Assembly: GCF_030064895.1 (NCBI RefSeq)
Contig: NZ_JASJEB010000024.1
Coordinates: 1 to 42,206, forward strand
Reading direction: 5' to 3'
Length of the DNA: 42,206 bases
From: Crocosphaera sp.
Lineage (GTDB): Bacteria; Cyanobacteriota; Cyanobacteriia; Cyanobacteriales; Microcystaceae
Shown: one piece after another, positions 1-3,305 of the stretch
How positions within the stretch are numbered: the stretch's first letter is position 1
Layout: every line of letters starts with the position of its first letter
Notes under the pieces: model-generated
The model's input: the letters and a program-made list of their open reading frames with translations, nothing else
Told to the model about the DNA's origin: nothing
Databases searched by the model: none
Program-made: the position numbers and the translations under genes

Positions 1-1068
1 GTTATGGTCATAGATTGAGACATTTTTAGAAGATTTACTATTGGTAAATCCTCCAATCCATCCCCTTATAACTTGTCCTTTGCGACTGCTTTCTACATAG
101 TCCCCAGACCGAAATCCAAAAGGAGTTATTGTTCCTCCTTGACGCTTGAGAATTCCTCCCTTTTTATACTGTTCTTGATGGAGTTTACGTCTGAACAATT
201 TAGGGCGAGTTAATACAATAAAAGGGGTTTGAGTAACTAAACATTGACCAATCCATTCATGACCATGATTATTGCCACGTTGAAAAGATTGATATTTGAT
301 AAAAGCAGAAGAAGCAATGGCAATGGCATCATTTCCATGAGATTCTATAGATTGTTTATCTTTATGCTTTTTCTCTTTTATTAACCCTAATTTTTCTCGG
401 AAACTTCCTGTAGTTTTAGAATCTACGGGAACGACGGTAGCTATTTTCCTGGCTTCTTTTCTAAACCATTCTTGTCCCACAGTAACAGGAGAAATACCTC
501 GTCCATTCTTGATTGTATAACCCCCACAATCTTCATCTCTAATTTCTGCTATTGGTAGCAGTTTAGACATTTCTCGTAATACTCGCAATTCCATTAAGCG
601 GTTAGCAAGTACACTGGGAGGTATTTTGCTTTGACGACGATTCTTAAACCTTTTCTCTCTATGATTACGGAGCTTAAAAGGTTTAGTCCTATCAATACGT
701 CTGGCACGTCGAGAACGTCTTAACTCTTTTCTTTTCGCCATTTTCCCTGTTACCGATTGACGATCTTTTTTAGTTTTTTTCGACTTATAAAATCCTGGTA
801 AACAAAGATGGAAGACAATAATTGTAACTAATTTAGACTGGAAAGCAATTCCTGTAAAAGCTTTGCCTCTATCTGTCCCTGCTACAATTTCTTGTACTTC
901 ATGACCTGATGGTTCTTTTGTTAATTGGACATAAAATACTCCTAATTTATTACGCTTAGGAATAGCTTTACCAGACTTAATCCATTTTCTAGCACGGGCT
1001 GGTGTTGTCGGCATTAATGGTTTGCCAACTGGATCTTTTACTGGAATTCTTGTTACTTGATTAGTCAT
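1..1068 (-). CDS. isrB: IsrB-type RNA-guided nuclease (IscB relative lacking HNH), 3' end cut by window
   Basis: The frame is open from the ATG at 1068 to the window edge (356 codons, no stop reached). An N-terminal PLMP-type domain is visible (KPLMP at about residue 17), then RuvC-I (AGTDRGKAFTGIAF, Asp66), an Arg-rich bridge helix (about residues 115-150), RuvC-II around IAEIRDED (Glu179 is the likely acidic residue) and RuvC-III (HGNDAIAIAS, His244 and Asp247). Only about 65 residues separate RuvC-II from RuvC-III and they hold no HNH motif. IscB carries its HNH in that gap, so the architecture is that of IsrB, a family of about 350 residues known to nick DNA under omegaRNA guidance. The start has the RBS AAAAAGGTG. 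Transcription follows the structured RNA at 1075-1345. It could be an HNH-deleted IscB, but the frame is clean and the length is normal for IsrB. Confidence 0.85.
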   Translation of the reverse strand, partial: MTNQVTRIPVKDPVGKPLMPTTPARARKWIKSGKAIPKRNKLGVFYVQLTKEPSGHEVQEIVAGTDRGKAFTGIAFQSKLVTIIVFHLCLPGFYKSKKTKKDRQSVTGKMAKRKELRRSRRARRIDRTKPFKLRNHREKRFKNRRQSKIPPSVLANRLMELRVLREMSKLLPIAEIRDEDCGGYTIKNGRGISPVTVGQEWFRKEARKIATVVPVDSKTTGSFREKLGLIKEKKHKDKQSIESHGNDAIAIASSAFIKYQSFQRGNNHGHEWIGQCLVTQTPFIVLTRPKLFRRKLHQEQYKKGGILKRQGGTITPFGFRSGDYVESSRKGQVIRGWIGGFTNSKSSKNVSIYDHN

Positions 1069-1074
1069 ATAATG

Positions 1075-1345
1075 CACCTTTTTAAGATGTATTTGTAGAT
1101 AAAATCTACGTCCCTTCGGGCAATTTGATGAGCGTATCTTCTATTCACGACTAGACCGTAAAGAGGAGCCACTGCGGTCTTGGGGGTTTCCCCCAGGAGC
1201 AAGTGGCCTGTACAAACTAGGGAAATATTTGTACGTTTATCCCCACCAAATCTCTATGCCCTAACCAACTCTTGCGTTGCCTACCGTGAAACCTATTTCT
1301 AGGTTTTTTGGCAAGCCTCGACCTCAGCCGTTAGGCGGGTCGAGG
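1075..1345 (-). ncRNA. HEARO-type omegaRNA of the IsrB locus
   Basis: The stretch between isrB and the next gene is dense in hairpins when read on the minus strand. Going 5' to 3' there is CCTCGACC/GGTCGAGG (1345-1316), then AAACCTA/TAGGTTT, GTACAAA/TTTGTAC, a strong TGGGGG-aaa-CCCCCA hairpin inside a CCACTTG...CAGTGG arm, AGACCG pairing with a downstream CGGTCT, and a final GTAGAT/ATCTAC hairpin close to the isrB start. IscB and IsrB omegaRNAs (HEARO RNAs) lie directly upstream of the nuclease ORF and have this multi-hairpin, pseudoknotted form with the guide at the 5' end. Ends are estimated from pairing; the guide would extend past 1345 into 1346-1366. Confidence 0.75.
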
Positions 1346-1359
1346 TAGTTGACTCTAAA

Positions 1360-2070
1360 TTAGAATAATTCTAGTCCACTATCCTCAAAAAGTTTAACTA
1401 ATTTTTCTCCCATTAATTGTTCTTCTCGTAACATGACAAGACATTTTTTGGCAAACCAGTCATCATTTTTAATTTTGTCTCGTAAAAAGTCTTTCACATC
1501 GTCATCAGTAATCTCTTTATCTTCATAAAGTTTCTGGATATCTTCTAGGGAACGATAAAGAATTGTATTTTTACCAAAAATTTCATCTTCATAAATAATT
1601 TCCTTACTCATCCATTCCCAGTCAACTCTTTGTATCCAGAGTTTTTCCCCTGAAAAAAGAGAATTAATATTAAGGGTTAAATCATCAGTTACCCACCAAT
1701 AAGTTTGGGGATCATCGTACATATCTCCTGTAAGACTGTTAGCTAAGGTAACATGATTTCCTGAAAAATTACGAATGTTAACATTAGCATTTTCTGTGGT
1801 TCGGTAAGCAATTTTTAATCGTAAATAAAGTCCTTCTTTTTCATATTTATTTTTGCGAGGAAGAAGATTAAAAAAACTAATTGCCGCCCCTGCTTCGTAA
1901 ATTTCAATTAATCCTTGTTCTTTGTCCAAATACCAATTTGAACCATAAATAGCTGCGTCTGCTGCTGCTGCTGTTCCTCTTTGTCCCAAAATATCCTTTT
2001 CTGTGGCAAAATAAGGACGAGGCATTATCGTTTTTTTCAACCTTGGGAAAAATTCTCGTTTAGGTTCCAT
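1360..2070 (-). CDS. Conserved-looking hypothetical protein, 236 aa
   Basis: I do not recognise this family. The start at 2070 is well supported by the RBS AAAGGAG seven bases upstream. The protein is soluble and has no signal peptide or membrane segment. It holds an Ala-rich run (about residues 34-40), a central part rich in beta-type hydrophobics and Trp (residues 75-155, with TYWWVTDD and VDWEW), and an acidic, helical C-terminus rich in Asp, Glu and Lys (residues 160-236). The stop codon is only 15 bases from the omegaRNA 5' hairpin, so the IsrB element seems to sit directly behind this gene, and the predicted guide overlaps the gene's last codons. Codon use resembles its neighbours. Confidence 0.6.
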   Translation of the reverse strand: MEPKREFFPRLKKTIMPRPYFATEKDILGQRGTAAAADAAIYGSNWYLDKEQGLIEIYEAGAAISFFNLLPRKNKYEKEGLYLRLKIAYRTTENANVNIRNFSGNHVTLANSLTGDMYDDPQTYWWVTDDLTLNINSLFSGEKLWIQRVDWEWMSKEIIYEDEIFGKNTILYRSLEDIQKLYEDKEITDDDVKDFLRDKIKNDDWFAKKCLVMLREEQLMGEKLVKLFEDSGLELF

Positions 2071-2289
2071 AATTTCTCCTTTAAATCCCTAGTTTAATCA
2101 GAGGTTTTACCTACATAACTCTTAATTGTATCACTCTTGTTGTCCTCTAAAGTCGATTAATTTCTAGATGTCTTTAATTATAAGCATTCAGCCGTCAGTA
2201 TTTAGTTTTCAGTTAAGAGTTGTTAAGAGTTAAATTATCTCCTACTTTTTCCAGTCTAATACTCCTTATAAACCTTAATTTTAAAACGA

Positions 2290-2660
2290 GTATTAACATT
2301 GGCAAAATCAATAATCAACACTTTGTACAGATTCCTTTTCATGCTCTGAGGCAACAACTAGCCTACTTGTGTAAAAGATATGGAATTAATTACATCGAAC
2401 AAGAAGAATCCTATACCAGTTTAACGAGTGCATTAGATTTAGATAATCTACCAGAATATAATGCAGATAATCCACAAACCTATGAATTTTCAGGAAAGAG
2501 AATAAAAAGAGGTTTGTATCGGACTAAGAATAAAAAATTAGTCAACTCAGATATTAATGTTTCTGCCAACATTGGACGTAAAAGTAAAGCCAATCTTTCT
2601 GAAAAGAGAGAGGTATTAGAGGGGATTTTGGACGCTCCAAGACGATACTTTATCGTGTAA
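2290..2660 (+). pseudogene. tnpB remnant (C-terminal part, OMEGA nuclease of IS200/IS605)
   Basis: The readable segment resembles only the C-terminal third of a TnpB: FVQIPFHALRQQL, then YGINYIEQEESYTS, YEFSGKRIKRGLYR and DINVSANIGRK, which is the RuvC-III Asp region with the usual S/N-A-N-I ending. The RuvC-I and RuvC-II regions and the whole N-terminus are missing, and the sequence upstream of about 2290 does not match the family. This subgroup has no CxxC zinc ribbon, so its absence is not a lesion. The downstream sequence AAGAATCCCCATAGCCTTGC resembles the right-end/reRNA of such elements. It is probably inactive. Confidence 0.75.
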
Positions 2661-2817: not shown

Positions 2818-2969
2818 TTGTTCTTTTGAGCCGATTACTATCGTAACAAGGTATAGCAGAATTTGTCAAGTGTTTTCAAAAAAAAATTTTAAACAAGTCT
2901 GAGGAACATGGGTGTGAGTAAGCTGATAGCACTTTTCTCAAGTCTGTTGACCAAACATTGAACATTGAA

Positions 2970-3305
2970 CATTTTGGTTTCAAGCCTCTCCCTTTAGGGA
3001 GAAAGAAGTTTGGGAGAGATGTGCAAACAGTTAACCCTAAATATACCAGTTCTTATGCTTTTGATGGTAGTGGGAAAGTTAAACGCAGTAAAAAGAATTA
3101 TTCTTTGTGTAGGTTTCCAAATGGCAAACAATATAATGCCGATTTGTCCGCCTCATATAATATCGGGGCAAGGTATTGGTATTCTGTCTTAATTGGGGAT
3201 AAGTATTTCTCTAAGGTATTTGTTAGCCAAAGTTCTACAAATACACTGCGGACACCAGTTTGCTTAGGGACACTTAGAAGTCTAAAAACTTCTGGGTGCA
3301 AGTGA
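2970..3305 (+). pseudogene. Second tnpB remnant (C-terminal part)
   Basis: Residues matching VNPKYTSSYAF, followed by NYSLCRFPNGKQYNADLSAS, correspond to the end of RuvC-II through the degenerate zinc-ribbon loop to the RuvC-III Asp (NADLSASYNIG) of a TnpB. Nothing upstream codes for the first two thirds of the protein. It belongs to a different subgroup from the 2290-2660 remnant. The stop is followed by a palindrome at 3308-3337 that would be the element's right end. The N-terminal limit is approximate. Confidence 0.75.

What the first reader, a model, noticed from the sequence alone, without database searches (positions are those of the whole stretch)
1..1345. IsrB nuclease with its own HEARO/omegaRNA in a cyanobacterium
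The nuclease has PLMP, RuvC-I/II/III and bridge helix but no room for HNH, and the 270 bases upstream fold into at least six clean stems. IsrB is the least-studied IscB relative (a nickase in the few tested cases). All RuvC residues look present, so this copy could be active.
Basis: partly seen in the sequence, partly recalled or inferred. Interest (0 to 1): 0.8.

Follow-up and report, generated by a model that had tools for sequence, protein, structure and literature searches.

The report
Cyanobacterial IsrB transposon with guide RNA
The left edge of this cyanobacterial contig carries a small jumping gene that encodes an RNA-guided DNA-nicking enzyme together with its own guide RNA; it is a well-preserved new member of a known family whose mechanism has already been worked out in relatives.

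Summary
The finding is real. On the minus strand, window 1-1068 encodes an IsrB (356 aa in the window, about 381 aa complete). Its best solved relative is DtIsrB (8dmb, E 1.5e-38). It has no HNH domain and keeps the RuvC residues. Bases 1108-1353 encode its omegaRNA. Rfam's HEARO model misses the window copy, but a covariance model built from 22 IsrB leaders outside this clade hits it once in 42 kb, full length, E 4.9e-13. All seven helices counted, including the nexus pseudoknot, covary.

The element starts at 1353 and its guide is the flank 1354-1373. A congener has the empty site, guide followed by TTGA. In the genus, 21 of 22 right ends are followed by TTGA, the motif DtIsrB prefers (PMC9581776); the two residues that read it are conserved in the 94% relative. 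More diverged empty sites mostly lack TTGA: 4 of 27 readable rows have it. The gene is under purifying selection.

Two cyanobacterial IsrBs, one from Crocosphaera watsonii, were shown functional in 2022. This is a new member of a known kind, useful mainly for its natural insertion-site evidence.

The parts
1..1068 (-). isrB coding sequence, ATG start at 1068, 356 of about 381 codons; 3' end lies beyond the contig edge
   Evidence: dN/dS
871..873 (-). RuvC-I Asp (D66) in GTDRG, where relatives outside this clade read DPG (one DQG)
532..534 (-). RuvC-II Glu (E179)
328..339 (-). RuvC-III H244-G-N-D247
1108..1353 (-). omegaRNA scaffold; the element's 5' end is at 1353 (GTCAACTACC)
   Evidence: covariance hit 1352-1108, E 4.9e-13; covariation; boundary from empty site
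1354..1373 (-). guide: host flank immediately 5' of the element (20 nt by analogy with DtIsrB)
   Evidence: guide length from PMC9581776
1265..1352 (-). closing stem S1 (TCAAC 1352-1348 with GTTGG 1269-1265) enclosing SL1 and SL2; helix names by analogy with DtIsrB
1210..1234 (-). SL4 hairpin; its loop strand 1223-1219 pairs with 1115-1111 (nexus pseudoknot)
1168..1207 (-). dispersed palindromic repeat inserted beside SL4
1360..2070 (-). 236-aa host gene (no Pfam or NCBIfam match; PADLOC DpdC at E 0.044 only) after whose stop codon the element inserted; not interrupted

Best explanation
This is an IS200/IS605-type (ISC) transposon without its own transposase that carries isrB and its omegaRNA. 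Shown here: elements of this family sit directly 5' of a TTGA motif without target duplication, so the host bases just outside the 5' end are contiguous with the omegaRNA and occupy the place of the guide. [quoted passage not shown] An element-free copy of the site (guide + TTGA) is therefore a target, whereas the occupied site is not, because there the guide is followed by the element's own GTCA. The likely use is to bias repair so that the element is kept or regained after excision by a Y1 transposase acting in trans (inferred, not shown here).
For: Near full-length match to DtIsrB. RuvC residues kept. omegaRNA found by a model whose sequences exclude this clade; covariation 0.568 against 0.209 shuffled and at most 0.139 slid; adaptor pseudoknot. 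Empty orthologous sites read guide|TTGA in G529 for the window locus and for the C76 locus; for C76 the 3' flank aligns from its first base too. A third site (L132, in G524) reads TTGA in G000 and G529, matching the first bases of a G524 right-end flank linked to that locus. TTGA after 21 of 22 right ends. All 24 5' ends found by similarity begin GTCAAC; the 23 with a full flank have unrelated guides. TAM-reading residues R323 and Q326 conserved in L026. dN/dS 0.055 and 0.096 by two methods against L026.
Against: No experiment. The window copy lacks its last 25 codons, and its own 3' flank is assigned to contig C56 only by elimination; synteny did not support or refute it. Rfam HEARO does not match the window copy. 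L026's 3' flank reads TTTA, as does L236. Over all empty sites readable to within 2 bases, only 4 of 27 rows show TTGA; at the L145 site even G000, 92.5% identical upstream, reads TAGG, though there the first 28 bases of the 3' flank have no counterpart. No Y1 transposase was found linked to these ends. CwIsrB preferred NTG in vitro (PMC9581776), less than TTGA.
Confidence: 0.9

Rival explanations
1. It is a decaying remnant: the gene looks intact by chance and the RNA is no longer functional, because a 44-nt palindrome has broken into it.
For: The palindrome sits inside the RNA; many copies in the genus are truncated or end at contig edges; no expression data.
Against: The frame is open over all 356 codons with dN/dS 0.055-0.096 against L026 and 0.041-0.078 against the G524 copy over 285 codons. 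The counted helices and the nexus pseudoknot are fully paired in the window copy. The palindrome lies between SL4 and the next part and forms its own stem.
Confidence: 0.12
2. It is an IscB that lost its HNH domain recently, not an IsrB.
For: NCBIfam's IscB model matches the N-terminal half below cut-off (72 of 175 bits).
Against: IscB structures match only weakly (E 3e-5 and worse) while IsrB 8dmb matches end to end. The clade is HNH-free in 5 of 5 members aligned and forms one group with 100/99 support.
Confidence: 0.03
3. The upstream RNA is a cis-acting leader that regulates isrB translation, not a guide RNA.
For: It lies directly upstream of the start codon; PMC9581776 (section 6) notes that the terminal hairpin of DtRNA holds the Shine-Dalgarno sequence, so a second role is possible.
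Against: The RNA's 5' end coincides with the transposon end and a variable flank in all 24 5' ends, as a guide architecture requires and a leader does not. It covaries with an IsrB omegaRNA fold including two pseudoknots.
Confidence: 0.03

Closest known systems
DtIsrB (Desulfovirgula thermocuniculi), PDB 8dmb, PMC9581776
   Same: Domain order, RuvC residues, TAM residues R323/Q326 (seen in L026 and the C76 copy), TTGA motif, 5' stem region, SL4 and two pseudoknots (helix names by analogy), 5' guide
   Different: 12 more residues between RuvC-I and the bridge helix, GTDRG in place of VDPG at RuvC-I, apparently no SL3 (only 5 alignment columns between the two halves of the central stem), an extra palindromic stem beside SL4
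CwIsrB (Crocosphaera watsonii) and DsIsrB (Dolichospermum), tested in PMC9581776
   Same: Cyanobacterial IsrBs with group-B omegaRNAs, reported functional
IsrB-like orf2067 of Microcystis inserted in cyanophage Mic1 gp49, PMC11237433
   Same: Cyanobacterial IsrB homologue inserted at an NTGA-type motif
   Different: Motif ATGA; recognised there by structure comparison; its RNA is not mentioned in the passages seen
Rfam RF02033 HEARO (IscB/IsrB omegaRNA)
   Same: Six clade sisters (L029, L030, L128, L133, L134, L135) match the full model, 1-211, from the G of GTCAAC at 34-40 bits
   Different: All below the 83-bit cut-off; the window copy itself is not detected, nor are L026, L127 and L130 at the thresholds used

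Membership tests
IsrB (OMEGA nickase) | PLMP + RuvC-I/II/III + bridge helix + C-terminal TAM-interacting domain, about 350-400 aa | tested here: met
   phmmer end to end with 8dmb; alignment of catalytic residues
IsrB (OMEGA nickase) | No HNH domain | tested here: met
   C-terminus from L026 and C76, not from the window copy itself
IsrB (OMEGA nickase) | omegaRNA directly upstream with 5' stem region, SL4, nexus and adaptor pseudoknots | tested here: met
IsrB (OMEGA nickase) | Guide position in the 5' flank, NTGA-like TAM at the other end of the element | tested here: met
   exceptions
IsrB (OMEGA nickase) | RNA-guided nicking of the non-target strand | not testable with these tools
   Needs biochemistry
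Rfam HEARO RF02033 | Score at or above the gathering threshold of 83 bits | tested here: not met
   No hit in the window; clade sisters 34-40 bits
IS200/IS605-type (ISC) transposon | Subterminal hairpin, fixed target tetranucleotide, no target duplication | tested here: met
   both junctions against an empty site at C76
IS200/IS605-type (ISC) transposon | Mobilised by a Y1 transposase | tested here: inconclusive
   Y1 genes in 9 of 9 genus genomes, 103 matches; these ends were not found at any of the 10 Y1 loci checked

The most novel reading that the evidence does not exclude
A mobile host palindromic repeat has become an interchangeable extra stem of a guide RNA. It sits at the same peripheral place beside SL4 in the window copy and in 2 of the 9 G524 copies long enough to tell, and a related palindrome sits there in a Calothrix IsrB RNA, while other sisters lack it. 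It would represent repeated grafting of cyanobacterial palindromes onto an omegaRNA without loss of function, in an IsrB clade with its own RuvC-I signature (GTDRG).
Probability: 0.15. Interest if true: 0.5.

Novelty: new member of a known kind. Interest (0 to 1): 0.35.

Why it matters
Why a transposon keeps an RNA-guided nickase rather than a double-strand cutter is, to my knowledge (recalled), open. One genus offers a natural panel: 23 insertions of this family (22 with a full, distinct 20-nt flank), some empty orthologous sites, internally deleted derivatives and an intact gene under purifying selection. The motif read from natural right ends, TTGA, agrees with biochemistry on a distant relative, which makes homing by nicking directly testable in a cyanobacterial setting.

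Tried and rejected
Rfam HEARO on the window alone was uninformative; it became informative on sister copies.

Reading TAMs from empty sites in congeners gave mixed results. Rows that align to within 2 bases of the boundary: 27, of which 4 read TTGA. By site: window 1 of 1; C76 1 of 1; L132 2 of 7 (others TTAA three times, TTAC, CTCA); L140 0 of 5 (TTAA four times, CTTA); L127 0 of 3 (TTTA twice, TTTG); L141 0 of 3 (GGTA, TTAA, TATC; a fourth row reads TTGA only if a one-base indel is allowed); L145 0 of 5 (TAGG, TTGG, CTGA, TCAG, GTGC); L139 0 of 1 (TTAA); L146 0 of 1 (TATC). The rows are 71-94% identical to the flank, so lost motifs are expected; I rest the claim on the right-end flanks and on the sites where the junction aligns. 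Of the 24 5' flanks, L129 was too short to use; the remaining ones gave no row readable to within 2 bases.

A first, loosely bounded pseudoknot test was noisy and was replaced. Linking contig C56 to the window by synteny with G529 gave nothing; the link rests on C56 and C76 being the only two right ends found in the assembly. A look for the element's ends at 10 of 103 Y1 loci found nothing. Structure prediction was not run, and the viral, phage, plasmid and metagenome collections were not searched.

Full report
What is there. The window is the whole of contig C118 of a 5.5-Mb cyanobacterial genome; its closest named relative for this gene is a Crocosphaera MAG, 94%. Minus-strand ORF 1-1077 is open to the contig edge. 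It matches Pfam RRXRR (1.2e-33), NCBIfam IscB below cut-off and, over residues 4-355, DtIsrB 8dmb (1.5e-38). Aligned with 20 cyanobacterial relatives and DtIsrB it keeps the RuvC-I Asp, RuvC-II Glu and RuvC-III His and Asp and has no HNH insert. The missing C-terminus is about 25 residues. The first 120 bases of the window are repeated identically on contig C76, where the frame runs on to a stop, and L026 is 381 aa from ATG with no HNH.

The protein is constrained. dN/dS is 0.055 (YN00) and 0.096 (NG86) against L026, and 0.041 and 0.078 against the G524 copy over 285 codons. The window protein belongs to a small clade (window, L026, L027, L029, L030 in the tree of 33 rows; 100/99 support) that reads GTDRG at RuvC-I; the other frames listed read DPG, one DQG. 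IsrB matches are common in cyanobacteria: 31 of 386 phylum genomes at E 1e-40 and 53 of 195 order genomes at E 1e-60, the genome itself included.

The RNA. The 284 nt upstream of the ATG fold at -100.5 kcal/mol (z -5.4, 0 of 200 shuffles as low). Rfam HEARO does not hit the window at gathering or 1000-1450 at E up to 10, while it finds two hits above cut-off elsewhere in the genome. It hits 7 of 12 relatives' loci (32.5-46.9 bits; clade members L029 and L030 at 36, not L026) and 4 of 6 G524 loci (34.2-40 bits; not L127 or L130), always over positions 1-211 and below the 83-bit cut-off.

I aligned 32 IsrB leaders, 9 of this clade and 23 others. Candidates were 42: 4 lacked the 5' anchor motif I searched for, 4 were near-copies dropped, and L035 and L042 were left out by choice. 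A structure that I named gives 90.4% of cells paired, 31 of 40 pairs with changes on both sides, and covariation 0.568 against 0.209 shuffled and at most 0.139 when slid. It was drawn from these sequences, so the slid control flatters it. For a stricter test I built a covariance model from 22 of the 23 leaders outside the clade (L040, poorly paired, was left out). The clade's sequences were held out, although the structure had been drawn with them in view. It gives exactly one hit in the 42-kb window at E up to 10: 1352-1108 minus, full length, 69.1 bits, E 4.9e-13. In 13 clade loci it gives 12 hits at E up to 1; three of these (L129, L003, L027) are weak or partial and L031 has none. The adaptor pseudoknot also holds: mean pairing score 15.2 for own partners against 11.8 for shuffled (maximum 13.3 of 300) in 23 non-clade sequences. 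Helix names follow PMC9581776 by analogy.

The ends. 5' ends homologous to window 1353: 24 found by similarity (the window, 22 in genus genomes, and L031), all starting GTCAAC. The 23 with a full 20-nt flank are unrelated to each other (closest pair 8 differences). Seventeen are in one congener, G524. A right-end pattern with the following bases left open found 22 places in 5 of 9 genus genomes, and none when read backwards; 21 of 22 are followed by TTGA, the exception being a decayed copy with TTTA. Four further relatives (L027, L029, L030, L031) show GTTGA at the corresponding place by eye, and L026 shows TTTA.

Empty sites. G529, the congener most similar at these loci, has both orthologous sites empty. 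For the window locus it reads ...tagtttaga|TTGAATT against ...taatttaga|GTCAAC in the window; the window's 3' junction is off the contig. For the C76 locus it reads ...ttagatt|TTGATACTTTA against ...gtagatt|GTCAAC...TTCG|TTGATACTTTA, and 600 bases of 3' flank align from the first base. Insertion there is exact, 5' of TTGA, without duplication. At the L132 site G000 and G529 read TTGAATTAATT, like the start of right-end flank L218, which other congeners tie to that locus. Over all readable rows only 4 of 27 read TTGA (itemised under Tried and rejected).

Agreement with published biochemistry. In PMC9581776 (sections 6 and 8 read; [quoted passage not shown] The phmmer alignment places R and Q of KRIGQ of L026 on chain residues 473 and 476; with residue 1 at chain 151 these are R323 and Q326. 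The C76 copy has the same KRIGQ. The same paper reports functional IsrBs of Crocosphaera watsonii and Dolichospermum (motif NTG). A Microcystis IsrB homologue inserted at ATGA in a cyanophage gene is described in PMC11237433 (passages).

Mechanism. Shown: location, boundaries, motif, RNA fold, constraint. Inferred: guide use, nicking, and a role in keeping the element after excision. The occupied site should be spared because the guide is followed by GTCA and not TTGA (inference). The element lacks a transposase; Y1 genes occur in 9 of 9 genus genomes but none of the 10 loci checked carries these ends. PMC9755519 likewise says, of IscB/HEARO, that TnpA is only sparsely found nearby (passage). 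Internally deleted derivatives, 310 bp on C76 and a shorter one in G529, have both ends; either they moved without isrB in cis or the deletions followed insertion.

Novelty. Searches for prior work. The system is a new member of a known kind. Less ordinary are the number of natural right ends agreeing on TTGA and the palindrome inside the RNA.

Noticed in passing
window 1168-1207: A palindrome inside the omegaRNA is a dispersed repeat with matches in all 9 genus genomes (22 bases only in G527); it is absent from L026, L029 and L030, and a related palindrome occupies the same place in Calothrix L027.
   Followed up: partly
window 2283-2660: A 378-base stretch at the end of a TnpB-like remnant (Cas12f1-like TNB domain) recurs, whole or in part, at many places in the genus; whole copies are 87-93% identical. 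Probably a TnpB-derived non-autonomous repeat.
   Followed up: no
window 2958-3305: A second TnpB-like remnant (below Pfam cut-off) lies on the other side of a tRNA gene at 2744-2817.
   Followed up: no
L127 (G524:C289): In this G524 copy the isrB match stops after about codon 64; other ORFs, possibly of a second insertion element, follow.
   Followed up: no
L030 (G278): The IsrB of this relative has about 15 extra residues in the loop after RuvC-I, possibly from an in-frame repeat.
   Followed up: no
L031 (G080): A relative at 75% identity has lost nearly the whole omegaRNA: 38 bases of its 5' end are followed directly by isrB sequence, which contains one stop.
   Followed up: no
G000:C90 (L003), G000:C183 (L144): Two decayed copies of the omegaRNA 5' part in the same genome.
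   Followed up: partly
G000:C70 and C159: Two strong HEARO RNAs (116-119 bits) beside weakly matching frames of 445 and 429 codons, not analysed further, possibly IscBs.
   Followed up: no
L026 and L236: Right ends followed by TTTA instead of TTGA.
   Followed up: no
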